NCBI RefSeq assembly: GCF_000443995.1 | Contig: NZ_AUMC01000010.1 | Span: 434,001-498,000 of the forward strand | Length of the DNA stretch: 64,000 nucleotides | Direction of reading: 5' to 3' | From: Bacteriovorax sp. BAL6_X | GTDB taxonomy: Bacteria; Bdellovibrionota; Bacteriovoracia; Bacteriovoracales; Bacteriovoracaceae | Part shown: in pieces, positions 44,925 to 63,467 of the stretch | Numbering within the stretch: position 1 is the first letter of the stretch | How the letters are laid out: each line of letters starts with the position of its first letter | Program-made: the position numbers and the translations under genes | The notes under the pieces: model-generated | What the model saw: only the letters and a program-made list of their open reading frames with translations | Database searches by the model: none | Told to the model about the DNA's origin: nothing

Positions 44925-45292
44925 GGGGGTGCCCTGGTTTCGACGGGATGGTTGACAGGTATCCGGGCGTGTCCAGGTTGGTCTCCACGGTCCTGGTAAA
45001 AAGGAGTCCACCGTTAATTGCAGACGATTATGCAATGCCAATGGCTGCCTAATTAATTAGGATTAGTCTTGTGAGGCGCTACTGCCAAGAAACAGAATGT
45101 AGCAATCCAGTTGAATCTGCTGGTTAACTAGGTTTCGAGCCTGCCGGGGCATCTCGTTAATCACTCACCGGGGTTCGCCGAGGTCACGTATCACGGACAG
45201 TCTTGTCTTCTGACGATAACCGAAGACTACGCACGTAGGCCGCTATCAAGACGTCATTTCGGACGTGGGTTCGATTCCCACCACCTCCACCA
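44925..45292 (+). ncRNA. ssrA: Transfer-messenger RNA (tmRNA)
   Basis: One-piece tmRNA of about 368 nt. The 5' end GGGGGTG pairs with CACCTCC at the 3' end (one G-U), followed by encoded ACCA. TGGTTTCGACGGGAT after the 5' strand and GGGTTCGATTCCC in the T-arm are diagnostic of the tRNA-like domain. The tag frame at 45020-45052 reads GCA GAC GAT TAT GCA ATG CCA ATG GCT GCC TAA, giving ADDYAMPMAA. The central region has GC-rich pseudoknot-like pairings. With SmpB it rescues stalled ribosomes. Its 3' end is also the insertion site of the mobile element. Confidence 0.97.
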
Positions 45293-45309
45293 TCGGATTC
45301 CGGTGGTGG
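45270..45309. other. Probable left attachment site at the ssrA 3' end
   Basis: The tRNA-like 3' end of ssrA (T-arm to CCA) is immediately followed by phage/ICE-type genes and a tyrosine integrase, the classical ssrA integration site. An 8-bp perfect inverted repeat (CCACCACC at 45278-45285, GGTGGTGG at 45302-45309) straddles the junction. The matching right copy is not in the window, so the core length is unknown. Confidence 0.65.
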
Positions 45310-45414
45310 AAGCCCTCTTTCCTTAAACATTATTAAAATCAGCTGCTTAATTACAGTAACTTGCGTTTAAATCGGACGTTGAGACCTGTCTGAACTTGTC
45401 TCAAACTGTCCCGA

Positions 45415-45444
45415 TGTGGCTATTTGTGGCTAACTTTTTGGCTA
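45415..45444. repeat. TGTGGCTA repeats near integrase
   Basis: TGTGGCTA at 45415-45422 and 45425-45432, then TGGCTA at 45439-45444. Such short tandem repeats beside an att site are typical of integrase arm-binding sites. A CTGTCTGAACTTGTCTCAAA stretch with repeated GTC lies just upstream. Confidence 0.5.
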
Positions 45445-45460
45445 CATGCATTTTTGATGG

Positions 45461-45539
45461 ACTATTCAGTGTAGCAAAATGCCAAAAAACGGCCAAAAAA
45501 CGCAGTTAAGTTTCTGATTTTAAACAACTACTCAGTGTA
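45461..45539. repeat. Pair of ACTAYTCAGTGTA direct repeats
   Basis: ACTATTCAGTGTA (45461-45473) and ACTACTCAGTGTA (45527-45539) are 12/13 identical and 66 bases apart; two copies of GCCAAAAAACG lie between them. The second copy is 46 bases before the HTH gene start. They could be arm sites for the integrase or operators for the HTH protein. Confidence 0.5.
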
Positions 45540-45585
45540 TCGGTCTGGGCCATTTAAACGGCGTTTTTACACAAAAGGAGTAGTT

Positions 45586-45966
45586 ATGACGGCCAAGAAA
45601 AACGAGAAAAAACAGACAAAGAAAAAGAACAGAAGATGCGATCTAAAGGTCGAAACGAGAGAAGGGAAGCTTCTTAAGTACCTTCGAGAATCACGAAATT
45701 TATCAGTCAGAGCCGTAGGCAGAATCATGGGAATTTCTGAGTCTACGGTTTGCCATTCAGAAAATGGAAGGCGAGACCTCACTAAACAAATCATCGCAAG
45801 CTATCTTGATGTTTATGGTTACAGCTATGACGAATTCGAGAAGATGCTCCACGGCGATATTATTCTTCCTGAGAATATGCGTGGCGAATGTATCGAAATA
45901 ATTAAAAGGCTTGAACCATCTAAACTAAGAGCTGTTAAGGCTTTTTTAAATACCTTCATCGGTTAA
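45586..45966 (+). CDS. HTH (XRE-like) transcriptional regulator
   Basis: A 126-residue protein. A Lys-rich N-terminus (TAKKNEKKQTKKKNRR) precedes a helix-turn-helix at about 28-80: KLLKYLRESRNLSVRAVGRIMGIS then ESTVCHSENGRRDL. The C-terminal half is helical. ATG at 45586 has GGAGTAGTT upstream, so the earlier in-frame start is rejected. It sits directly before the integrase gene (12-base gap to the chosen integrase start) and probably controls excision or integrase expression. Confidence 0.8.
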   Translation: MTAKKNEKKQTKKKNRRCDLKVETREGKLLKYLRESRNLSVRAVGRIMGISESTVCHSENGRRDLTKQIIASYLDVYGYSYDEFEKMLHGDIILPENMRGECIEIIKRLEPSKLRAVKAFLNTFIG

Positions 45967-45978
45967 TTGGAGGTAGCA

Positions 45979-47025
45979 ATGGGAATTAAATACGACAGAG
46001 AAAAGAAACATTACGTGGTCACATACCATAGAAGGCATCCTGTAACGAAGCAATCTAAAAGCATAAGGCGTCAGGGAATTAAGACTAAGTATGAAGCGGA
46101 AAGGGTCTACAAAGAATTAATAATCAAGATGGGGGAGAAGTTTAACGAGAACCTTCATCCTCTTTGGCCCGATCTCGTTGAAAAGTTTTTAGACTACTAC
46201 GCCAATTGTGGAATCGCTAAGAACACGCTTAAAAATTACGAGCAATGTATAAAAGCCAATACTTTTCATATTTGGGGAAAGAAAAGAATTAACGAATTTA
46301 GTACTTCTGAAATTAGAGATTTTATTTTAGATGACTGTGCTAAGTTTTCTGAGGCCCATCGAAAAAGTATGCTTAAGTATTTACGAGCTGTCTTTAGGTA
46401 TGCAGTAGAGCATGACATCATTTATCGCGATCCTTGTCCCAGGCTTAAATTTAAAAAGAATGAGAAAATCAAAAAAATGCTTAAGGAAGAAGAAATAAAG
46501 ATCCTTCTTAGAGAAGCACAAGAGAGAAACCATGAATGGTTTCCTGTCTGGGCAGTGGCCTGTTACACAGGACTTCGCAACGGAGAACTCTATGCTCTTA
46601 AGTGGGAGAACGTCGATTTTCAAAATAGGCTTATCTATATCACTCATTCTTGGAATAAGATTAATGGCCTTAAGACCACCAAGTCGGGGGATGATAGGGT
46701 CGTAGAAATTGCTCCTAGCCTTATGCCAGTTATCAAAGAGCTTTATGATAATAAAGAAGGGGAGTTTGTTCTTCCAAGGATTAGAGACTGGGAAACTGGC
46801 ACTCAGGCAAAACCGTTAAAAGATTTCTTAAAAGAATTAAATCTCCCTCTTATTCGCTTTCATGATCTAAGAGCTTCATGGGCGACGATCATGCTTTCTA
46901 AAGGAATAGAGCCAATTAAGGTTATGTCTATGGGAGGTTGGAAGGATTTGAAGACGATGCAGATTTATATTCGCAAGTCAGGGATTCATATTCAGGGGAT
47001 TACTAATAATTTAGATTTTTTATAG
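45979..47025 (+). CDS. int: Tyrosine recombinase integrase
   Basis: A 348-residue phage-type integrase. An N-terminal arm-binding region (MGIKYDREKKHYVV then RRQGIKTKYEAE) precedes a SAM-like core-binding domain (about 60-150) and the catalytic domain with Arg-200 (TGLRNGEL), Lys near 232-235, HxxR at 295-298 (FHDLRASWAT), Trp-321 in the His/Trp position (MGGWKDLKTM) and nucleophile Tyr-330. The motifs are complete, so it is probably active. GGAGGT lies before the chosen ATG. It likely recombines the ssrA 3' end with the element's own site. Confidence 0.94.
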   Translation: MGIKYDREKKHYVVTYHRRHPVTKQSKSIRRQGIKTKYEAERVYKELIIKMGEKFNENLHPLWPDLVEKFLDYYANCGIAKNTLKNYEQCIKANTFHIWGKKRINEFSTSEIRDFILDDCAKFSEAHRKSMLKYLRAVFRYAVEHDIIYRDPCPRLKFKKNEKIKKMLKEEEIKILLREAQERNHEWFPVWAVACYTGLRNGELYALKWENVDFQNRLIYITHSWNKINGLKTTKSGDDRVVEIAPSLMPVIKELYDNKEGEFVLPRIRDWETGTQAKPLKDFLKELNLPLIRFHDLRASWATIMLSKGIEPIKVMSMGGWKDLKTMQIYIRKSGIHIQGITNNLDFL

Positions 47026-48599: not shown

Positions 48600-49682
48600 T
48601 TAGGCTGCCTTCTGGGCGTAAGTATTCTTGAATACTTCCACCTTTGTAATAAGGTTTATTAAGTTAGATTTTATTGAAGACCAGTCTTCTGATAGGTCTA
48701 TATTCATAATATGGATATTATAGTCCCAAATATTATTTGAAACTTCGTAGGTCTGGTCAATCGTTGGATATAAAAGAATCCCTATTGCCTTTTCTTTACA
48801 ACTCCGTCTTCTGTTTTCAAGATATGTCATGAGTTGCATTAAATATTTAGAATGAATCTTTTCTTGGCCATACATATTTTTAGTTAAAGTCTCTTTCTCG
48901 AATTTAGTGTCAATGATAATTCTTTGACCTGTTTTAAGAGAAACTAGTTCAATATCTGTTATTAAATAAGGAATAGTCTTGCTGTTTTTCAATGAGTTTT
49001 CGATCCCAACATATTGAGATTTACTGTTTTCAACTTTATGAGTTCCACTCAGTTCTTTTTGATAGAAGTTATAAACGAACTTCTCATATAACTTCCTCAT
49101 TTTGTGAGGGGAACGGATAAAATCTATAAACTCATACTTACCGTTGGACTCGTTTTGAGATGTATTAGTTAAAATAAATGAACTTACAGATAGTAATAAT
49201 TTATAAAATTGAAAGTTCTTAGGAAGTCTTATTGTTTCTATGTCTTTAGGTGCACTTGATAGGAGACTAACATTTTTTAATATTGAAAGAGTATTTTTAA
49301 TTTCTATCGCAAGTTTAGGACATAAGTTATCAGAGCAGAACACTCTGTATAGGGCCGTTTTAATAATTCTATTTGGTTGATTATCTTCAGTGTATTCATC
49401 AAATTCACAAATTGCTTGGCATTTCAGAAATGTTTGCTTTTTTAGAGAATCACTAAAGTTTATCTTCCCTTTTATTGTCGCCGTTTGTTCGCTTCTTAAA
49501 AGATAATCTTTATAGAGACCTCTTTTAAGTTGGTAATTAACAGAAGAGTTTAGAATACTTCCAAGGAAGTCTAGGTCTTGTTCGTAACTATCTTTTGAGA
49601 TTTGAATCTTATCTGCTTCGTCTAGGATATCCCAAGCGTATGTTAACATGTAATATAGGTTCTTTATTGGAATTTTACTCAT
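48600..49682 (-). CDS. mcrC: McrC-type restriction endonuclease subunit
   Basis: A 360-residue McrC. The N-terminal segment IPIKNLYYMLTYAWDIL is characteristic. A middle domain precedes the PD-(D/E)XK nuclease: DIELVSLKTGQRIIIDTKFEKE, with Asp-243, Asp-258 and Lys-260 the likely catalytic residues, followed by the YLMQLMTY helix. McrC is recruited by the McrB GTPase ring and cleaves modified DNA. It overlaps mcrB by one base (TAATG). The nuclease motif is intact. Confidence 0.9.
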   Translation of the reverse strand: MSKIPIKNLYYMLTYAWDILDEADKIQISKDSYEQDLDFLGSILNSSVNYQLKRGLYKDYLLRSEQTATIKGKINFSDSLKKQTFLKCQAICEFDEYTEDNQPNRIIKTALYRVFCSDNLCPKLAIEIKNTLSILKNVSLLSSAPKDIETIRLPKNFQFYKLLLSVSSFILTNTSQNESNGKYEFIDFIRSPHKMRKLYEKFVYNFYQKELSGTHKVENSKSQYVGIENSLKNSKTIPYLITDIELVSLKTGQRIIIDTKFEKETLTKNMYGQEKIHSKYLMQLMTYLENRRRSCKEKAIGILLYPTIDQTYEVSNNIWDYNIHIMNIDLSEDWSSIKSNLINLITKVEVFKNTYAQKAA

Positions 49683-51397
49683 TAACCAGCTCGTAGAAGT
49701 TCTTCAATCTCTTGTGTTGCTGTAGCCTCATTATCAAACCAATACTCTCGCAGGAGTGGTGCGATTTCTGTTTTTATTACTGATTGATACCATTTAAAAT
49801 TATATGGTATATCCTCAGGAAGTGATGAGAAAAAGCTATGTCCGATAGCAAAACCTTCTCCCAGTTGTTTGTATTTGTTAATTATTTTTTCATTCAAACT
49901 GGTCATTCTTTGCACTATCATATTTGCGACATCGCTTGGCACACCATTGTCAATAAGATGACTGTGAAACTTTTTACTTTGGTATTCTGGTGATAGAGAA
50001 ATAAAAGCAAATCGTCGTCTAAGTGCAAAATCAACCATCGCAAGTGATCTGTCTGCTGTATTCATCGTACCAATGACGTAGACATTATCAGGTATGAAGA
50101 AAGATTCATCATCTTCTGAATAAGTGAGCTTTATTGAATATTCTTCAAACCTTTTATCTGATTCAAGTAGCATCATAAGTTCACCAAATATTTTAGAAAG
50201 GTTCCCTCTGTTTATTTCATCAATAATAAAGAAGAACTTTTTATTTTTATTTTTACTAGCAGTTTTGCAAAAGTTGTAAAAAACACCGTCTCTTACTTCA
50301 AAAGTTCCATCTTTATTAGGTCGAATTCCTTGAATAAAGTCTTCATAAGAGTATGATTGATGAAACTGAACCATTTCAGTGACACTTGTATCTTTAGTCC
50401 CGTTAAAGAGCCAAGCGATTTTTTGTGCGATGAATGTTTTCCCAACACCCGGTGGCCCTTGAAGAATAATATTCTTTTTAATATTTAAAGCATCTATAAT
50501 TGATTTAAGCTTGTTTTCTCCTAAAAACATAGTTTCAAGGGCCAGTTCAAAGTCATATACTGATTCTGCTTCTTCTTCAATCTCCTCTTCGAGTTGATGC
50601 TCCTTTTCTCCTTTTAGGGGTTCCTTAAGTGATATATTGTCATTGTAGGAAAGTAGTTCTTCTTTGTGTTTCCATATATTTTCGATAGCCTGTTCTGCTG
50701 AATGAAATTCTTCAAAGTTATCTTTGTTGATCTTAACATTTGAACCTGTTGCGATACCTGAATGAAAAGCATCTCCTCGTATGCTGAGAAAAAGCTGGTA
50801 AGCATGTTTATGTTTTGTTGATTCAGTAGGGTAGAGAGCTATCCAGCAGCGTTCTGAGCCGAATTGTGTAGAGCCTTTGAAGTTGTTGTAGTGATAACTA
50901 TAGTCTTTGAGCCCTGACTGCTCTTTTAAAAAGTTCCCAATATTTTCGAGGTGGTTGTTAATTTTAGATTCTACTTCTTCATGGAAGTAGAAGGTATTAA
51001 ACATTCTCGCAGGCTTTTTCCAATTAGAGAAAGAATCTCTTTTTTTTTCTTTGAACTCTTTAATAGCTTGTCTTGTGTCGCTAGGAGAATTTATAAATAA
51101 TTTGGTATTATTATCTCGAATATTATCCATCATGTTATTAACAAGTTCTATAGTAATAGTCTCTCTTTTCTGGAGACGTAGTAAAACCTCCAGCCGAACA
51201 GCATTTACCATCCTAAGCTTTCCTTTTCTATTTACGCCTTTATCTCTGTATATGTTAGTAAGACTTACTATAAGCTCCTTATCCATATTGTTGATAAAAT
51301 CGATTACTGCTTGAGGTTCTTGAAAATAGTGTTGAATCTTTTTTGCTTCTCTCTGTACATCAAGAATATGCTCTAAGATTTGGCTATTGTTGGTCAT
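49682..51397 (-). CDS. mcrB: McrB-type GTP-dependent restriction ATPase
   Basis: A 571-residue AAA+ GTPase. Residues 1-130 are a helical N-terminal region; about 135-225 form a candidate DNA-reading domain (CWIALYP, AYQLFLSIRGDAFHSGIATG). The motor has Walker A GPPGVGKT (314-321), Walker B FFFIIDEINRGN (388-399) and the McrB signature MNTADRSLAMVDFALRRRF (445-463), which marks GTP specificity. It forms a ring that drives McrC. The reading domain is not that of E. coli McrB, so the recognised modification is unknown. It starts the five-gene operon. Confidence 0.9.
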   Translation of the reverse strand: MTNNSQILEHILDVQREAKKIQHYFQEPQAVIDFINNMDKELIVSLTNIYRDKGVNRKGKLRMVNAVRLEVLLRLQKRETITIELVNNMMDNIRDNNTKLFINSPSDTRQAIKEFKEKKRDSFSNWKKPARMFNTFYFHEEVESKINNHLENIGNFLKEQSGLKDYSYHYNNFKGSTQFGSERCWIALYPTESTKHKHAYQLFLSIRGDAFHSGIATGSNVKINKDNFEEFHSAEQAIENIWKHKEELLSYNDNISLKEPLKGEKEHQLEEEIEEEAESVYDFELALETMFLGENKLKSIIDALNIKKNIILQGPPGVGKTFIAQKIAWLFNGTKDTSVTEMVQFHQSYSYEDFIQGIRPNKDGTFEVRDGVFYNFCKTASKNKNKKFFFIIDEINRGNLSKIFGELMMLLESDKRFEEYSIKLTYSEDDESFFIPDNVYVIGTMNTADRSLAMVDFALRRRFAFISLSPEYQSKKFHSHLIDNGVPSDVANMIVQRMTSLNEKIINKYKQLGEGFAIGHSFFSSLPEDIPYNFKWYQSVIKTEIAPLLREYWFDNEATATQEIEELLRAG

Positions 51398-51590: not shown

Positions 51591-52382
51591 ATGTTAAAAA
51601 ATTGGAGAGAAGTAGTGGAAAATATCATAAGCCTAGAATCATTATTTCATAGAAGTAAAGAGCGAATAAAAGATTTAGGAGAAGTCTTTACTCCTGATAA
51701 ATATGTTGAAGAAATGTTAGACATGCTCTCAAAAGACAGAAAGAATTTTTGGAATGATGAAAGAAATGTCTTTTTTGAGCCCTGTTGTGGCCATGGAAAT
51801 ATTGTACTTGCTATTTACAAGAGAAGATTAGAGTCAATATTTGTAAAGGCCTCTAAAGAATATTCAAATGAAGCATCTCTGTATGCAGTTTCTAATTCTC
51901 TAAATACCCTATGGGCAATCGATATTGATCCTGAGAATATTGAGAGTTGTAGAACTAGGGTTTTACATATTACACTTCAATTTCTCAAGTCTAAGTTAGG
52001 CTATGATTCGGAGTATTCAATCATAGAAGAACATCAAGAGTTTTTTTGTCATATTATATCAGCTATTAAATGGCAGATTTATGTAAATGAGACACTTACA
52101 TCGTTAAGCTGCTCTGAGAGTTATGAAAAGCAAGCATTGAAGACCAAGGCAAGTAAGCTGTGGGCATGTGAAAATGAACATCAACCCGTGGAGTTTCATA
52201 CTACATGGGCTCAGTTTTTTGATGAATGTGAGACTAACGATCTTTTACCTCTTGAGTACGAAAGAGCATCGAAGCTTATAGAGTCTTATTTGGATGGAAG
52301 TAGGAAGAATGTTAAAGATTTTAAGTTTGCGGAGATTTTATATAAATATAATGGTGGTAATTATATGGAAGTGAGTGCGTAA
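51591..52382 (+). CDS. Methyltransferase-like protein with SAM motif only
   Basis: A 263-residue protein. The GEVFTPDKYVEEML opening (30-43) and SAM-binding motif I FFEPCCGHGNIVLAIY (61-76), with the acidic motif AIDIDPENIESC (about 109-120), are those of N6-adenine DNA methyltransferases. The catalytic motif IV (NPPY or DPPY) is absent from this chain, but it is present in the next gene. It may therefore be one subunit of a split enzyme, or a decayed one. It opens a three-gene operon and overlaps the next frame by eight bases. Confidence 0.75.
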   Translation: MLKNWREVVENIISLESLFHRSKERIKDLGEVFTPDKYVEEMLDMLSKDRKNFWNDERNVFFEPCCGHGNIVLAIYKRRLESIFVKASKEYSNEASLYAVSNSLNTLWAIDIDPENIESCRTRVLHITLQFLKSKLGYDSEYSIIEEHQEFFCHIISAIKWQIYVNETLTSLSCSESYEKQALKTKASKLWACENEHQPVEFHTTWAQFFDECETNDLLPLEYERASKLIESYLDGSRKNVKDFKFAEILYKYNGGNYMEVSA

Positions 52383-53841
52383 AATGGGGGCTTTATTAAA
52401 GACTAATGCACATGTTGTAGATGTTTTAGGTAATGTTATTGGTCGAGATCAGCCAATTCTTAGGATGGAGAAAGCTGTAGAGATGGTTTCCCTTATAGGT
52501 AAAGAAAACTTTATGAACAAAGATGTAGTTTTCTTTGATCCTTTCTGTAAAGCAGGGGAACTCTTGCTCTCCTGTGCGTATCAGTCCTGCCTAAGTCTAT
52601 TGAAGGAAGAATCCAGATTAATGAATACTCAAGAGATATTTGAAGAAATTTTCATGTCCAAAAGGTATTATGCATTAGCACCAGATGAACGTCATCATAA
52701 ACTTAGTTTAAGAACATTTTTAGGTAATGAAAATTCTCATCGGGATGAATTTAATCATGTAATTAGAAATGGGAATTATTTATCAGAAGTTGATGGGACA
52801 CTAAACAGAGCAGTATTTAAAAAGGAGTTTGAAGATATGATTAACTATATTAAAAAAGATTCGGGTGCTAAAAAGATAATCGCTGTGGGTAACCCTCCTT
52901 ATCAAGAGTCTGATTCTGGTTTTGGTGGAAGTGCAAGAGCAATTTATAATCATTTTGTTGAGGCCTTAATGGATTCTGATGATATTGATGAGTTTGTGGT
53001 TGTTATACCATCTAGGTGGTTTGCAGTGGGGAAAGGGGTTGATAAGTTTCGAGAAAGGATTCTCGCATCATCTGAAATAAAGTCCTTACACTATTTCAGC
53101 AAGTCGAAGACGGTATTTCCAACTGTTGATGTTCTTGGAGGAGTTTGTTTTTTTCATTATTCTAGTTCTCATAGTGGAAAGACATCATTTGTTGAAGGTG
53201 ATGTGGTTTCTAAGATAGATATTTCTCAGTTTGATATTATTCCAGATGATCCAAAAGCATACTCTATTATTAATAAAATTATGAGTAATCATAATGTGTT
53301 TATTAATGAGATTGCATGGAGTCGAAACCCATACGGACTTCCTAGTACTTTCTTTAGAGATAACGAAGAGGCAGATAGTAATGATGTTAATTCAATTAAA
53401 TGTTATTCAAGAGGAAGGAAAATTAAACTGACAACGACGAATGAGATTCGTAAAAACAATGATAAGGTCAATTTTTATAAGGTAGTGATCCCGTCTGCTT
53501 ATGCCCCAGGTTCGAAAACAGGAGTGAGAAGAGTAACACTTCCTGTGAATCAGTTTTTTATTTTAAATAAAGATGAAATCACGACGGAAACTTATAGTGT
53601 CATTGATATTTTTAAAACAAAGACTGAGGCTGAAAGGTTTGTTAAGTATTTACAAACTGACTTTGCAAGATACCTGTTGGGACTAAGAAAAATTACTCAA
53701 CATATACCAAAGGACAGATGGGCATGGGTACCTTATTTAGATATGAAGAGTGAATGGACTGATGAGAAGCTCTTTGAGAAATTTAACCTTACATCTTCTG
53801 AAATTGCAAATATTAAGAAAAAGGTCGAGGAGTGGTCTTAG
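52375..53841 (+). CDS. Eco57I-type DNA methyltransferase (NPPY)
   Basis: A 488-residue protein. It carries a second SAM-type motif, VVFFDPFCKAGELLLS (51-66), and the catalytic IAVGNPPYQ (169-177) of N6-adenine methyltransferases, followed by an Eco57I-like fold (VVVIPSRWFAVGKGVDKFRE) and a C-terminal domain that could read DNA (YLQTDFARYLLGLRKITQHIP). The GTG at 52375 and the ATG at 52384 are both plausible starts. Two SAM motifs in consecutive genes but one NPPY suggests a two-subunit enzyme. It is directly adjacent to the helicase gene. Confidence 0.85.
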   Translation: MRKMGALLKTNAHVVDVLGNVIGRDQPILRMEKAVEMVSLIGKENFMNKDVVFFDPFCKAGELLLSCAYQSCLSLLKEESRLMNTQEIFEEIFMSKRYYALAPDERHHKLSLRTFLGNENSHRDEFNHVIRNGNYLSEVDGTLNRAVFKKEFEDMINYIKKDSGAKKIIAVGNPPYQESDSGFGGSARAIYNHFVEALMDSDDIDEFVVVIPSRWFAVGKGVDKFRERILASSEIKSLHYFSKSKTVFPTVDVLGGVCFFHYSSSHSGKTSFVEGDVVSKIDISQFDIIPDDPKAYSIINKIMSNHNVFINEIAWSRNPYGLPSTFFRDNEEADSNDVNSIKCYSRGRKIKLTTTNEIRKNNDKVNFYKVVIPSAYAPGSKTGVRRVTLPVNQFFILNKDEITTETYSVIDIFKTKTEAERFVKYLQTDFARYLLGLRKITQHIPKDRWAWVPYLDMKSEWTDEKLFEKFNLTSSEIANIKKKVEEWS

Positions 53842-56301
53842 ATGTCGTGTTTAGAGTTATATGCATATTCAACTGATCAATATTTAAAAGAAGGAATAAT
53901 AAAGGTCGGCCATACAAAATTAGGGCGAACTGATCAGAGGGTTAAAGAACAATTTGGTACTAGCAACCCAGAAGTGCCGAAATATGTTCTTATTGGTACA
54001 CTTCCTCGTAATATCACTGACAAGGATATTCATAATGCTATGATTATGAATGATTGTGAGCATATTAAAGATGCACCGGGAAAAGAGTGGTTTAAGGTAA
54101 AAAATAAAGCAGACCCCTTTGAGGAAGTAAAAAAAGCTTACAATAAGGTTGTTTATGGGAGCAATAGACCTGACAATTTTACATTAAGAGAAGAGCAGGA
54201 AAGTGCTGTGAATAAGGCAAAAAAATGGCTGCTAAAAGAATATAGTGAAGATGTAATTCGGTCAGCTACTCACCCGGAGCGATTTTTAATAAATGCTAAA
54301 ATGAGGTTTGGAAAATGTTTTACAAGTATTCATCTTGCAAAATCTTTAAATTCTAAAAATACTCTAATTGTAACGTATAAGCCTGATGTTATTGGTGAGT
54401 GGATTGATACTGTAAATAATCAAGTCGCATTTGATAAGTGGAAAGGAATAAGAGCTAAGAAGAAAAAGGGGAGACACGATCCTTGTCTTTCAGATAATGG
54501 TGAATTTCCTTCTTCGGATGGGCCTATTGTAATGTGTGTATCTCTTCAAGATTTATGGATTGGAAATAATGGTGAAACAAAGAAGAGACTACATAAAATT
54601 CCAAATATTTCTTGGGATTTGATAATTTTTGATGAAGTTCATTATGGTAGTAGAACTGAAAGAGCTAAAGATATTTTAGATAAATTGGATTATAAATATC
54701 GTTTGGATCTTTCTGGAACACCTTTTCGCTTGATTGAGCAGGATGACTTCTGTTCTCAACAGGTTTTTACATATAGTTACTTGGATGAACAGGAGAGAAA
54801 GAATAAGGAAGCAGAGAACGATCCAAATGAAGAACTAGAAGGTGTTTATAGGCAACTTCCAGATTTAAGTATTGCAACAATTGAAATTACAGAAAGAGAT
54901 ATTCAAGAGCAGAGGGATAAGTTTGAAACTGATGATATCGACTTTTCCTTGAATGCCCTATTTGAAACTCAAAATGGTGAATTTATACACGAGGATGCTG
55001 TAAGTCACTTTATTGACGGTCTATGTAAAAGAGATCATGATGCGAGAGCTGTGAGTGTATTTGGTAAACTCGGAGAGCAGTTAGGCTGTCCTGCAAAGAG
55101 ACATAGTGTATGGTGGATGAATAGAGTTGACTCAATCTCTGCACTAATTGAAAAACTAAAGAAACATCCATATTTTTCTAGATTTGAACTAATTAATGCT
55201 TCAGGAAGTGATAGTAAGAAAAATGATGATGACAATAATATTATTGCTAGGGATAAGTCTGTTGTTCAGCAAGCAATACAAAGAGTTGACTTGGATTCGT
55301 CAAAACTTGGCACGATAACGTTTACTTGTGGAAGGTTTTTAACCGGTGTAACCATCAGAGAGTGGGAAAGTATCATGATATTATCAGATGTTCAGTCAGC
55401 AGAGTCCTACTATCAAGCTATTTTTAGAGTCCAATCTGCTTGGGTTGATAAAAAATCAGGTCAAATAATGAAAAGGAAGGCATGGGTATTCGATTTTGCG
55501 ATAACACGTTGCTTGAAGGTTACATATGATTGTGCTTCCAATATCGCAGATCAAGTAGATCAACAGGAAAGTTTTGAGCAGAAAACGGATGCTAATAGAA
55601 ATAACTTGGAAATCATTACAGAGGGGTTATGTGAATCCTTAGATATAAAAAGATTTTATCAAGGAAGACTTATTGGAGATTCAACTAGTGCGAAAGATAT
55701 TTTTGAAGTTCTGAATCACGAGGGGTCAAAGATCGCTCTTGCAAGAAGGATAACTTCAAATGTTCTTGTTAATTTTAGTTGTTTGAAAATGCTAGAAAGT
55801 AATCCTGAACTTCTTGATATATTAAAAAAGGTAAAAGGCTATAGAACGCAGGAAGTTGCAGGTATTACTGCGGAAGAACTTGTGAAGATAGGGGTTGATG
55901 CATCTGATTTAGAAGATGTTAAGAATGACCCAAATACAGCTCCAGAAGAAAAAGAAAAAGCTATTGAAGACTTTATGGAAAAGGAGAAGGATAAGGAGAG
56001 ACAAAGTAGAAAGAAGTGGTATGCAACACAAATTAAAAGACTTGCAATTTGTATGGCAGACTTTATTTATATGACAATGGAGAGAGAGTATAATATTGAT
56101 GATGTCATACAAACAAAATCGCCGGAATTTTTCGAAGTGATGACTGGAATATCTAAAGATGACTTTGTGTTGTTGTGTGATTTAGGCTTTATGAATAGGT
56201 TCGCATTAAACAGAATTGTAAGAGAGTTTAGAGATCAAGAGGATACCTCTCTGAACCCTGAGGAATATATTTATGAGAGTCTTAAGCAATTAATTGCTTA
56301 A
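53842..56301 (+). CDS. GIY-YIG-like (T5orf172) / SF2 helicase fusion
   Basis: An 819-residue protein. Residues 1-88 match the T5orf172 type of GIY-YIG domain: LYAYS (6-10), IIKVGHT (19-25), Arg-33 region, DIHNAM (62-67), EWFKV (82-86). A superfamily 2 motor follows: Walker A variant AKMRFGKCFTS (152-162), DEVH box (264-267), SGTPFR (291-296), TCGRFLTGVTI (495-505) and ESYYQAIFRVQSAW (521-534). The C-terminal ~250 residues are charged and helical. It resembles a restriction translocase in which a GIY-YIG domain replaces the usual PD-(D/E)XK nuclease. The usual catalytic Glu of that domain is not obvious. Confidence 0.85.
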   Translation: MSCLELYAYSTDQYLKEGIIKVGHTKLGRTDQRVKEQFGTSNPEVPKYVLIGTLPRNITDKDIHNAMIMNDCEHIKDAPGKEWFKVKNKADPFEEVKKAYNKVVYGSNRPDNFTLREEQESAVNKAKKWLLKEYSEDVIRSATHPERFLINAKMRFGKCFTSIHLAKSLNSKNTLIVTYKPDVIGEWIDTVNNQVAFDKWKGIRAKKKKGRHDPCLSDNGEFPSSDGPIVMCVSLQDLWIGNNGETKKRLHKIPNISWDLIIFDEVHYGSRTERAKDILDKLDYKYRLDLSGTPFRLIEQDDFCSQQVFTYSYLDEQERKNKEAENDPNEELEGVYRQLPDLSIATIEITERDIQEQRDKFETDDIDFSLNALFETQNGEFIHEDAVSHFIDGLCKRDHDARAVSVFGKLGEQLGCPAKRHSVWWMNRVDSISALIEKLKKHPYFSRFELINASGSDSKKNDDDNNIIARDKSVVQQAIQRVDLDSSKLGTITFTCGRFLTGVTIREWESIMILSDVQSAESYYQAIFRVQSAWVDKKSGQIMKRKAWVFDFAITRCLKVTYDCASNIADQVDQQESFEQKTDANRNNLEIITEGLCESLDIKRFYQGRLIGDSTSAKDIFEVLNHEGSKIALARRITSNVLVNFSCLKMLESNPELLDILKKVKGYRTQEVAGITAEELVKIGVDASDLEDVKNDPNTAPEEKEKAIEDFMEKEKDKERQSRKKWYATQIKRLAICMADFIYMTMEREYNIDDVIQTKSPEFFEVMTGISKDDFVLLCDLGFMNRFALNRIVREFRDQEDTSLNPEEYIYESLKQLIA

Positions 56302-56404: not shown

Positions 56405-56788
56405 TTAGGTTCCCCCCTCGCCACCAAGAGTCATGCGAAAGTTATGCATAGACTGCTCTAGTTGCTCCATTTTCTCAACTGGAATCTGAATTCTACCTCC
56501 ACCATCAACACCATTTAAAGGCTTGAGAATAACCGTATCAATCTCACCCGAGATAGGTAAATCTTTTATCTTAAGAGCTTCTGAGACCTTTGAAGACGGG
56601 ACATATAGTCTATTATCAAAAGAACGGATATATTTAACGTCTTTTAGCTTCACATCTTCCACGTTGTAAAAAACTTCACTTTCAAGCTCTTTGTAAGAAA
56701 GGGCCACGTTAGCTTCTTTGAAAGTTAGAGGACTATTTGCAAAACTGCTAAGACTTAAAAGCATTAATACTGGAAATAGAGGTTTCAT
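56405..56788 (-). CDS. Small exported protein, unknown
   Basis: A 127-residue protein with a signal peptide (MKPLFPVLMLLSLSSFA). The mature part is beta-rich (LYVPSSKVSEALKIKDLPISGEIDTVILKPL), ending with a GGRIQIPVEKMEQLEQSMHNFRM helix and a Gly-rich tail. The ATG overlaps the stop of the upstream regulator-like gene (ATGA), so they are coupled. No family recognised. Confidence 0.65.
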   Translation of the reverse strand: MKPLFPVLMLLSLSSFANSPLTFKEANVALSYKELESEVFYNVEDVKLKDVKYIRSFDNRLYVPSSKVSEALKIKDLPISGEIDTVILKPLNGVDGGGRIQIPVEKMEQLEQSMHNFRMTLGGEGGT

Positions 56789-57615
56789 TGTAATTCTCCT
56801 AAATCTGGCGCAGTGATGGTATCAGCAAGAATTGTAGTAAAATCTGGTATTCCATCCTCTGTTTCGTGTGTGTTGTAAATTTCTCTAAGCTCTGCAATAT
56901 ACTTTTGAGTCACTTCTTTTCTCTTTCTAATCCCCTCTGGTGTTAAAGAACCCCAGAAAACTTTAATATCGTTTTGGCCTTTTTCAATCTCAGACGTTTT
57001 AGCAAAATGAGATAAATATGCAACAGCTGATTTCGTTTGCTCTGCATCTAAGTATAGACTTTCGACATGACCAGTAATTTTCCCATTATCTTCTTTCAGG
57101 ACTTCGGCTGATAGCATTTTCTCTAGTTCTTGTAATGCAAAACCATCTAGTAGCTCTTTGATCTCACTTCTTGTTGTACCTGATTTGTTGTGGGCCAATA
57201 AAGCAATGATCATTGCGTTTTTATTTGTTAGGTATTTATCCAGTTCCGGCTCAGTCGAGAGTTTATTTGGCATTAATAGAGACTGATAAGCAGACTTTAG
57301 GAGTGCTCCGACCTCGCCCTTAGCTTCTTGAATAACTGAGGCTGGATTTTTAGAACCACTTACTCCACAGGCAACTTTAAGGACTAAATCAGCTTTAATC
57401 TTGCTCCGTCTATCTGATTTTTTCAGATAATAGAGAGAGCTTGGCGAGATGCCATTCTTCTCAGCAAATCCATTAATGGTAATGTTGGAGTGTTTCTCAA
57501 GGTAGTCATCCAGAAGGCTTAAAATTTCACTTCCTAAGACTTCATAGTTAATCGGCCTACATAGCTTTTCAACTTTTCCTACTACCGTTGCCTCCACATC
57601 ATGAATAGAAATCAT
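56785..57615 (-). CDS. Putative HTH regulator
   Basis: A 276-residue protein with a probable N-terminal helix-turn-helix: residues about 45-75, with NGFAEKNGISPSSLYYLKKSDRRSK. The rest is helical, with EVTQKYIAELREIY near the end. The overall plan (N-terminal HTH, long helical region, repressor-like C-terminus) recalls TIGR02147-type regulators common in Bdellovibrio relatives, but the match is loose. The region upstream contains two of the four 16-bp operator-like sites, so it may regulate itself. Its stop overlaps the next gene's start. Confidence 0.65.
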   Translation of the reverse strand: MISIHDVEATVVGKVEKLCRPINYEVLGSEILSLLDDYLEKHSNITINGFAEKNGISPSSLYYLKKSDRRSKIKADLVLKVACGVSGSKNPASVIQEAKGEVGALLKSAYQSLLMPNKLSTEPELDKYLTNKNAMIIALLAHNKSGTTRSEIKELLDGFALQELEKMLSAEVLKEDNGKITGHVESLYLDAEQTKSAVAYLSHFAKTSEIEKGQNDIKVFWGSLTPEGIRKRKEVTQKYIAELREIYNTHETEDGIPDFTTILADTITAPDLGELQ

Positions 57616-61249: not shown

Positions 61250-61516
61250 ATGAGTAGAAATCAATTTCCAACATTGCTAAACCAGAAGGCCACCATGCTC
61301 GCAAGTCTTACAAGAATTGATCTTCTCGTAGTTGGTTCAAGTTACCTGATCCTTTCATGGATGAAAGTTTCAGGTCTTTATTCACTCGCAACTATTGCTT
61401 TGATTCTAGTGTTTCTTAAGTTTGTAAATAAGAGATTAAAACAAGGTTTTTTTGCTCATTTAAAAGATGACAAGAAGCTTTCTTGGCAATTTAAGCTTGG
61501 AGGTCGTCATGAGTAA
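61250..61516 (+). CDS. VirB3/TrbD-like inner-membrane protein
   Basis: An 88-residue protein with two adjacent hydrophobic segments (about 23-40 and 44-58) flanked by a basic N-terminus and a polar C-terminus (KLSWQFKLGGRHE), the usual VirB3/TraL form. It overlaps the VirB4-like gene by eight bases, the common virB3-virB4 coupling. It would anchor the VirB4 ATPase. Confidence 0.72.
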   Translation: MSRNQFPTLLNQKATMLASLTRIDLLVVGSSYLILSWMKVSGLYSLATIALILVFLKFVNKRLKQGFFAHLKDDKKLSWQFKLGGRHE

Positions 61517-63467
61517 ATCAACTTTTCCAGTATTAGAAGTTCAAGGTAATAGGCTGACCTCAATCCATGGTGACGTATCTTGGTTCTACTCAATGCTACC
61601 ATCAGATACTTCTCAAATGGATGATGTTGAACGAGCTGGATTCTTTGAATCCTTGGCCCGTGGGCTTAACAACCTAAATCTTGAGAGTTATTTCAAGTTC
61701 TACAAGATTAGTGATTGTTCTTTCCTAGAAACTAACGGAACTCAGCTTCCGAGCTTTTCAGGGATTGAATTCAAGGAGCAAGATAGGCCCTTAGAGTGTT
61801 TCTTTCAAACTAGAGAGATATTTTCAGAAGTTGGAATCTATGATGACTACCTAAGTTTTAACGGGAAATACCTAAGAGTATTTTCGGTAAGTGAGTTTTC
61901 AGATGATGAAGCCCATGAGCACCTAATCCCTCAAGACGTTGATTACGTCCTAAGCTTTAAAAAGAAAGCTAAAGATAAGTCCATTAATAAGCTTGAGCTA
62001 ATTAGAACAGGACACCTTACTAGCTTTCTTAAATCTAAAAGAGATATTTCAAGTGAAGGAGCCTATTCTCAAGCAGAAGACCTCATGCACGATCTTATTC
62101 ATGGTAGTGAATCCATGTTTGAAATGGAGATGTTCTTTCTTTTGCGTAGTAACTCACTAGAAGAGCTAAATTCTATGAGCGAGGCCTTTGTTAGTGAAAT
62201 GCTTTCACGTGGAATCAAGGTCTTCGCAGAAGGACAGTCTCTAAGGCATTTCAAATCAGGTCTTACTTCTATCTTTAACGAGCTTATTCCTGGAGTTAAG
62301 TCTCGTCTTGGTCTTAGAACGCTACCAAATAAAACAAGTCATCTTCGCTACCTCTTACCTGTAGAGAGAAGCTTTCTTATGGATGAAGGAATGGAGCTTC
62401 ATGATAACTCTGGGAGGCCAATATACTTTGATCCTTTTACAGACGCTATTAAAAATAGAAATATGCTCGTAACTGGCATAAGTGGTGGTGGGAAGTCTGT
62501 TTTCGTAAATAAGATTGTCCATCACCTTATTGAGGATCACCCAACTGTAATCCTTGATAAGGGAGGCTCTTTTCGTAAGCTCACAAAGTATTACGGAGGA
62601 AGCAATTTAGAGCATGAATTTAATCCTTTCCAATTTAAAGACCCGATGTATCTACGCGAGATTATTCTCTCTGTTGTTGATGTAGAAAGGTTTGGAAAGC
62701 TAGAAAAAGGAAAGCTTTTAAGGGCCATTAAAGAGACCCTACCTAAAAGCGAATCCTTTTTTGGTCTTATAGATAATCTAAAAGAAGATTTCCCTGAAAT
62801 TGATCTCTATTTTGAAGATTTCAAAGATTATATCTGTGATGATCATATAGATACAAAGAGTATTCTATATGTTGACGTAGAAAACTATCCAAAGAGTGTT
62901 ATTGCGCCAATTATCATCTTTATCTTGGAATACTTTAAAAATATTCCAGAAAAAGAAAAGATTCTCGTCTTTGATGAGTGTTGGAGCTTTCTTGGGGATC
63001 ACAGCTCATATATTGATGAATGTTTTAGGACATTTAGGAAAACAGGTGCTTTTCCTATCGCTATTTCCCAATCTTTAAAAGACTTTTCTAGTCTTGGAGA
63101 TGATCTAGCTAATTCAATAACAAATAACTGCTATTTTAAAGTCTTCTTTCCTCAAGAGATGGAAGAAAGGCACGACATCAATTCTTTTGATGTCGAAAAT
63201 ATTGGAGCCCTAGAGTTTCAAAAGGGAGTCTTCTCAGAGTGCTATCTGAAATCCACAGATAATCGTTTTAGAAAGATCATTAGAAACTACTTAACTCCCT
63301 TGGAGTTGGAGCTATTTCATACAGAAGCAGGCAAAGACAAGAAGCTTGAAAGCTTTCTTTCTAAGTTTGAAGAGTTCTTTGATTCAAGTAAAGAGGCCAT
63401 TGAGGCCTATGTGAGGTTACGACATGAAAATTTTCAAAATAACAATGTCATTTATTTTGATATTTAG
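61509..63467 (+). CDS. VirB4/TrbE-family type IV secretion ATPase
   Basis: A 652-residue cytoplasmic ATPase energising pilus assembly and DNA transfer. The C-terminal motor has Walker A GISGGGKSVFVNKI (323-336), a VILDKGGSFRKLTKYYGG segment typical of VirB4, Walker B KILVFDECWSFLG (484-496), and a FRKTGAFPIAISQSLKDF motif with the conserved Gln. The N-terminal half carries the Phe/Tyr-rich VirB4 domain. It is short for VirB4 (usual near 800). The frame is open further upstream, but ATG 61509 has GGAGGTCGTC just before it and fits the coupling with the VirB3-like gene. Confidence 0.9.
   Translation: MSKSTFPVLEVQGNRLTSIHGDVSWFYSMLPSDTSQMDDVERAGFFESLARGLNNLNLESYFKFYKISDCSFLETNGTQLPSFSGIEFKEQDRPLECFFQTREIFSEVGIYDDYLSFNGKYLRVFSVSEFSDDEAHEHLIPQDVDYVLSFKKKAKDKSINKLELIRTGHLTSFLKSKRDISSEGAYSQAEDLMHDLIHGSESMFEMEMFFLLRSNSLEELNSMSEAFVSEMLSRGIKVFAEGQSLRHFKSGLTSIFNELIPGVKSRLGLRTLPNKTSHLRYLLPVERSFLMDEGMELHDNSGRPIYFDPFTDAIKNRNMLVTGISGGGKSVFVNKIVHHLIEDHPTVILDKGGSFRKLTKYYGGSNLEHEFNPFQFKDPMYLREIILSVVDVERFGKLEKGKLLRAIKETLPKSESFFGLIDNLKEDFPEIDLYFEDFKDYICDDHIDTKSILYVDVENYPKSVIAPIIIFILEYFKNIPEKEKILVFDECWSFLGDHSSYIDECFRTFRKTGAFPIAISQSLKDFSSLGDDLANSITNNCYFKVFFPQEMEERHDINSFDVENIGALEFQKGVFSECYLKSTDNRFRKIIRNYLTPLELELFHTEAGKDKKLESFLSKFEEFFDSSKEAIEAYVRLRHENFQNNNVIYFDI

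What the first reader, a model, noticed from the sequence alone, without database searches (positions are those of the whole stretch)
51591..56301. Split methyltransferase plus GIY-YIG-helicase fusion as a restriction-like system
Gene 1 has SAM motif I and GEVFTP but no NPPY; gene 2 has a second SAM-type motif and the single NPPY; gene 3 fuses a T5orf172 GIY-YIG domain to an SF2 motor. The overlaps imply a complex. It looks like a translocating restriction-modification system whose usual PD-(D/E)XK nuclease has been replaced by GIY-YIG and whose methyltransferase is divided in two. The Walker A is MRFGKC rather than GKT/S.
Basis: partly seen in the sequence, partly recalled or inferred. Interest (0 to 1): 0.8.

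Follow-up and report, generated by a model that had tools for sequence, protein, structure and literature searches.

The report
DrdVI-type split-methylase restriction system
Three adjacent genes encode a DNA restriction-modification system of an already described kind (prototype DrdVI): a two-part methyltransferase that marks the cell's own DNA and a motor fused to a GIY-YIG nuclease that probably cuts unmarked DNA; the point worth following is that in the main branch of this family the cofactor-binding and the catalytic signatures sit on different proteins.

Summary
The trio is real: 51591-52382 (M1, 263 aa), 52375-53841 (M2, 488 aa), 53842-56301 (R, 819 aa). It is not a new R-M type. Same order and domains occur on plasmid pDrdVI of Deinococcus wulumuqiensis (31/25/27% identity for R/M2/M1), whose M1-M2 pair was cloned and makes m6A in GCAGCC (PMC6430315). 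[quoted passage not shown] One scan found 571 relatives of R; 104 of 139 fetched loci are M1-M2-R. GIY-YIG and motor residues are nearly invariant, so the window copy looks intact. MRFGKC is a family variant (MRFGK in 104/104, then T in 98, C in 6). New here: reciprocal loss. M1 keeps SAM motifs X, I and the motif-II acid but has no NPPY (predicted half fold). M2 keeps NPPY and the complete fold plus recognition domain, but motif I is DPxxKxG and the motif-II acid is A/G/S throughout the M1-M2-R set. Methyl transfer probably needs both chains. The trio sits beside McrBC, downstream of an integrase next to tmRNA; 2 of 58 related genomes, the window's own included, carry it.

The parts
51591..52382 (+). 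M1 subunit, 263 aa: SAM-binding half of a gamma-class N6-adenine MTase, no catalytic NPPY
   Evidence: N6_Mtase E 0.015, below Pfam cut-off; 27% identical to the pDrdVI first gene; AF2 model shows strands 1-3 only, best match CamA residues 13-159
51678..51695 (+). motif X GEVFTP in M1 (residues 30-35)
   Evidence: E, V and T in at least 99 of 101 relatives
51771..51800 (+). motif I FFEPCCGHGN in M1 (residues 61-70)
   Evidence: both glycines 101/101
51921..51923 (+). motif II acid of M1 (D111)
   Evidence: D 63 / E 38 of 101
52375..53841 (+). M2 subunit, 488 aa: Eco57I-type MTase with NPPY and C-terminal recognition domain
   Evidence: Pfam Eco57I E 7e-14; PADLOC PDLC03375 E 1e-37; 25% identical to pDrdVI M2; AF2 complete Rossmann fold, pLDDT 88; residues 11-472 match CamA 6-577, Z 18.2, rmsd 5.8
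52531..52557 (+). altered motif I FFDPFCKAG in M2, Lys in place of the first Gly
   Evidence: K59 in 100 of 102 relatives, the other two a gap and an X
52678..52680 (+). motif II position of M2, acid replaced (A102)
   Evidence: A 74 / G 20 / S 6, no D or E, in 100 ungapped relatives
52891..52902 (+). catalytic motif IV NPPY in M2
   Evidence: N 101, P 100, P 101, Y 100 of 102
53842..56301 (+). R subunit, 819 aa: GIY-YIG nuclease fused to SF2 motor
   Evidence: ResIII E 2e-13; 31% identical to DrdVI R, 98% of the length covered
53842..54126 (+). GIY-YIG (T5orf172-type) domain, key residues Y7, K21-V22-G23, R33, E82-W83
   Evidence: relatives; conservation
54292..54318 (+). Walker A NAKMRFGKC
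   Evidence: NAKMRFGK: each residue in at least 101 of 104; then T 98 / C 6
54631..54642 (+). SF2 motif II DEVH
   Evidence: D, E, H 104/104
54712..54726 (+). SF2 motif III SGTPF
   Evidence: S, G, T, F 104/104; P 103/104
55414..55434 (+). SF2 motif VI QAIFRVQ
   Evidence: Q, F, R, Q 103/104
49682..51397 (-). neighbour, not part of the trio: McrB-like AAA+ protein, divergently transcribed
   Evidence: E 5e-99
48600..49682 (-). neighbour, not part of the trio: McrC
   Evidence: E 3e-84
45967..47025 (+). neighbour, not part of the trio: tyrosine integrase near the tmRNA gene (44925-45292)

Best explanation
A complete, apparently intact restriction-modification system of the DrdVI ('split methylase', Type IIG-like) kind. 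M1 and M2 together form one site-specific m6A methyltransferase whose recognition domain is in M2; it marks one strand of an asymmetric site. R is an ATP-driven DNA translocase carrying a GIY-YIG nuclease that cuts DNA whose sites are unmethylated, presumably guided by M1-M2. In detail (inference): M1 supplies the cofactor site and M2 the catalytic loop and DNA recognition, so neither works alone. Shown here: gene order, motifs, conservation, predicted folds. Shown elsewhere for DrdVI: m6A at GCAGCC by the M1-M2 pair. Inferred: methylation and cleavage by the window's own proteins, R joining the complex, translocation, SAM donated by M1.
For: Same three-gene order and domains on pDrdVI, R 31%, M2 25%, M1 27% identical, 98% coverage of R. 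M1-2.DrdVI cloned and expressed, GCAGCC, m6A (PMC6430315). [quoted passage not shown] 104 of 139 loci are M1-M2-R; most M2-R cases without M1 have M2 close to a contig end. Catalytic residues of all domains conserved. PADLOC model PDLC03626 (a Type IIG REase-MTase, 1359 aa) matches both M2 and R; R and M2 are fused in Lactobacillales and Paenisporosarcina. Patchy presence among related genomes.
Against: No activity has been tested for the window's proteins. The papers read report methylation by DrdVI, not cleavage. Pfam does not find GIY-YIG in the window protein itself. Two AF2 monomer models cannot show a complex. The motif X region of M2 is lost in the window's clade (GRDQPI instead of SNDEVFTP).
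Confidence: 0.9

Rival explanations
1. M2 alone is the methyltransferase and M1 is an accessory or allosteric SAM sensor.
For: The M2 model is a complete MTase fold matching CamA and M.TaqI nearly from end to end. In two phage loci with order R-M2-M1 (L096, L131) M2 keeps CGRG and the motif-II Asp although M1 is also present.
Against: In the M1-M2-R set, M2 has Lys in place of the motif-I Gly in 100 of 102 and no acid at motif II, while M1 keeps both. This holds for the active DrdVI pair too.
Confidence: 0.3
2. A decayed remnant: methylation only, or nothing, with an inactive nuclease, like the B. subtilis DnmA-YeeB-YeeC cluster.
For: DnmA-YeeB-YeeC, with a related part list, showed no phage restriction in B. 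subtilis (PMC9973331); Bibersteinia DrdVI-like genes are broken; relative L014 has M2 and R each in two frames.
Against: All three window ORFs are full length with the family-invariant catalytic residues, and relatives 45-67% identical (M2 or R) keep them open.
Confidence: 0.1
3. A new R-M type unrelated to described ones (the implied first reading).
For: GIY-YIG plus SF2 plus two MTase proteins is unusual in standard typing, and Pfam, NCBIfam and PADLOC have no model for the trio as such.
Against: The DrdVI prototype and its published relatives have these parts.
Confidence: 0.02

Closest known systems
DrdVI of Deinococcus wulumuqiensis NEB 479 (M1.DrdVI, M2.DrdVI, DrdVI; GCAGCC)
   Same: Gene order M1-M2-R; motif distribution; GIY-YIG-SF2 fusion; reciprocal motif pattern in M1 and M2
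   Different: 25-31% identity; window M2 lacks the SNDEVFTP motif X; window R has GKC instead of GKT; recognition site unknown
MaeIV of Methanococcus aeolicus (M1/M2.MaeIV, GCACY)
   Different: Archaeal; not compared by sequence here
Legionella adelaidensis and L. bononiensis loci (L002, L012) and Bdellovibrionales MAGs (L013, L014)
   Same: Same trio, R 56-64% identical; same degenerate M2 motif X in L002, L012 and L013
   Different: L014 has broken frames; none characterised
Fused form in Lactobacillales (L006, L009; compare PADLOC PDLC03626)
   Same: Separate M1, same motor and M2
   Different: R and M2 are one protein of about 1420-1450 aa; in L006 the N-terminus lacks the GIY-YIG residues and differs from the rest
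Type ISP (LlaGI, LlaBIII)
   Same: SF2 motor plus gamma-class MTase plus one recognition domain; M2 model matches LlaGI 834-1566, Z 17.7, rmsd 6.0, 391 aligned
   Different: ISP is one polypeptide with an Mrr-type nuclease and a complete MTase (established knowledge)
DnmA-YeeB-YeeC / OspHL35III
   Same: MTase plus SF2 motor plus GIY-YIG (T5orf172) nuclease
   Different: MmeI-like single-chain MTase; motor and nuclease are separate proteins

Membership tests
DrdVI-type split-methylase R-M | Three genes in order M1, M2, R | tested here: met
DrdVI-type split-methylase R-M | M1 with SAM motifs and no NPPY; M2 with NPPY and recognition domain | tested here: met
DrdVI-type split-methylase R-M | R is a translocase fused to a GIY-YIG endonuclease | tested here: met
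   the GIY-YIG call rests on alignment to relatives
DrdVI-type split-methylase R-M | m6A at an asymmetric site by the M1-M2 pair | not testable with these tools
   known for DrdVI and MaeIV, not for the window
DrdVI-type split-methylase R-M | Restriction of unmethylated DNA | not testable with these tools
   no assay; no cleavage data seen in the papers read
Type ISP | Single polypeptide nuclease-motor-MTase-TRD | tested here: not met
   three ORFs
Type III (Mod/Res) | One Mod protein with all MTase motifs, plus Res | tested here: not met
   canonical motifs divided over M1 and M2; M2 has motif I before motif IV with a C-terminal TRD
Type I (HsdRMS) | Separate HsdS specificity subunit | tested here: not met
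   no HsdS among the neighbouring genes scanned on either side
DnmA-YeeB-YeeC / OspHL35III | MTase complete in one chain; separate motor and nuclease proteins | tested here: not met
   motor and nuclease fused in gene 3

The most novel reading that the evidence does not exclude
In this family methyl transfer occurs in trans: SAM is held by M1, a half-Rossmann subunit, and transferred at the NPPY loop of M2, whose own cofactor site has been eliminated (Gly to Lys, acid to Ala/Gly/Ser). This would require a composite or domain-swapped active site, for instance with M1's strand 1 edge docking on M2.
Probability: 0.35. Interest if true: 0.55.

Novelty: new member of a known kind. Interest (0 to 1): 0.33.

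Why it matters
It removes a supposed new R-M type and connects an uncharacterised defence locus to a family with a known methylation product. It also turns the loose term 'split methylase' into a sharp, cheap test: in the main branch of a very widespread family (bacteria, phages, at least one archaeon) the only canonical cofactor site and the only catalytic loop lie on different proteins. If catalysis is in trans, either protein could be a point of control or of anti-restriction attack.

Tried and rejected
Pfam, NCBIfam and PADLOC on the window R protein did not name its nuclease domain; solved by scanning relatives. Sequence search of R against PDB gave nothing useful. No natural M1-M2 fusion was found among the loci, so no single-chain model of the pair was possible. 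No second copy of the tmRNA 3' end was found in the genome, so the right end of the island stays undefined. A second viral scan added no new members to the R-M2-M1 phage lineage, so that contrast rests on few loci. The promoter count was at chance and no terminator-like site was found.

Full report
Observation. The three genes are present as described. Gene 1 (51591-52382) carries GEVFTP and FFEPCCGHG but no NPP[YFW]. Gene 2 (52375-53841) carries FFDPFCKAG and the only NPPY. Gene 3 (53842-56301) has a ResIII motor. The junctions are tight but less so than stated: an 8-bp overlap that depends on a GTG start (an ATG lies 1 base past the stop), then direct abutment.

The nuclease domain. Pfam gives no nuclease hit for the window protein. 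Among 36 aligned N-termini of relatives, T5orf172 matches 32. In 104 R proteins Y7, K21, G23, D60 and E82 are identical in all and R33 in 103. The second Tyr of the GIY-YIG signature is Lys throughout. The motor signatures NAKMRFGK, DExH, SGTP and QAxFRVQ are nearly invariant; the residue after GK is Thr in 98 and Cys in 6. MRFGKC is therefore a minor variant of the family motif.

Identity. tblastn against plasmids found the same trio widely. One hit is plasmid pDrdVI of Deinococcus wulumuqiensis NEB 479, with the same order of three genes. The genome paper assigns GCAGCC m6A, Type IIG, to M1-2.DrdVI, cloned and expressed in E. coli (PMC6430315). [quoted passage not shown] The window's proteins are 31% (R), 25% (M2) and 27% (M1) identical to those of pDrdVI. 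That the three genes on pDrdVI are the ones named M1, M2 and DrdVI follows from the plasmid's name, the paper's table and the absence of another MTase gene in the stretch shown; REBASE itself was not available.

Spread. Of 139 loci examined, 104 have M1-M2-R. In Lactococcus, Pediococcus, Enterococcus and Paenisporosarcina R and M2 are fused, with M1 separate. In the search of relatives of the host genome, 2 of 58 genomes had R: the host itself and one other of the same phylum, 67% identical; five others of the genus and 30 of the family lack it. Close R proteins also occur in Legionella (61-64%) and Bdellovibrionales (56-57%). This patchy pattern fits horizontal transfer.

Division of labour. 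In 101 M1 proteins both motif-I glycines are invariant, the motif-II position is always D or E, and NPP[YFW] never occurs. In 102 M2 proteins NPPY is kept, the first motif-I glycine is Lys in 100, and the motif-II position is A, G or S in all 100 ungapped. The DrdVI pair shows the same pattern. AF2 gives M2 a complete seven-strand MTase fold (pLDDT 88) matching CamA over nearly its whole length (Z 18.2, rmsd 5.8, 413 aligned). M1 has only strands 1-3 (pLDDT 81) and matches only CamA 13-159 (Z 11.9, rmsd 3.4, 134 aligned), which by my recollection ends just before CamA's NPPY. M1 and the N-terminal half of M2 detect each other with profiles, so they are probably paralogous. Inference: since the DrdVI pair methylates, and its only canonical cofactor site is in M1 while its only NPPY is in M2, both chains probably build the working enzyme. 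Caveats: some active MTases tolerate changes of the first motif-I glycine (my recollection: M.TaqI has Ala there), so M2 may still bind SAM; and M2's own strand 1 already flanks its strand 4 in the monomer model, so a composite site would need a rearrangement. In two phage loci with order R-M2-M1 both proteins keep canonical SAM motifs, so the loss in M2 is not universal and may be derived.

Setting. The trio is divergent from an McrBC pair, downstream of a tyrosine integrase that follows the tmRNA gene, with a TraG-like ATPase gene further on. This looks like an integrated element, but no second att copy was found. McrBC homologues also follow the trio in L014.

Verdict. Ordinary as a system, new only as a member; the interesting residue is the reciprocal loss of MTase motifs, which is directly testable. 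I found no paper on it in the library, which does not hold most subscription journals.

Noticed in passing
L139:2646-8491 (IMG/VR 3300035698_002605): Phage-type variant with R fused to M2, followed by two extra ORFs of 308 and 327 aa holding only NPPY plus recognition domain, then a 141-aa M1. The starts of the ORFs repeat each other (192-nt direct repeats, 60-88% identical). They look like spare specificity cassettes that could be swapped in by recombination.
   Followed up: partly
L006:3518-7876 (Lactococcus pCV56A): In this fused relative the N-terminus is not GIY-YIG; the single DUF4145 hit in the scan may belong to it. The nuclease module may have been exchanged.
   Followed up: no
L096:6902-10682 and L131:6893-10768: Phage loci with order R-M2-M1 in which both M1 and M2 keep canonical SAM motifs.
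   Followed up: partly
window 44925-47025: tmRNA gene followed by an HTH gene and a tyrosine integrase: likely left end of an integrated element carrying McrBC and the trio; right end not found.
   Followed up: partly
window 61467-63467: TraG P-loop / HerA-like ATPase (666 aa) downstream of the trio, perhaps a conjugation part of the element.
   Followed up: no
L014:4647-9573: Bdellovibrionaceae relative with M2 and R each split over two frames, and McrBC homologues just downstream: a decayed copy or assembly errors.
   Followed up: no
window 56405-57615: Two minus-strand genes, 276 aa and 127 aa, directly downstream of and convergent with the trio, with no convincing family match.
   Followed up: no
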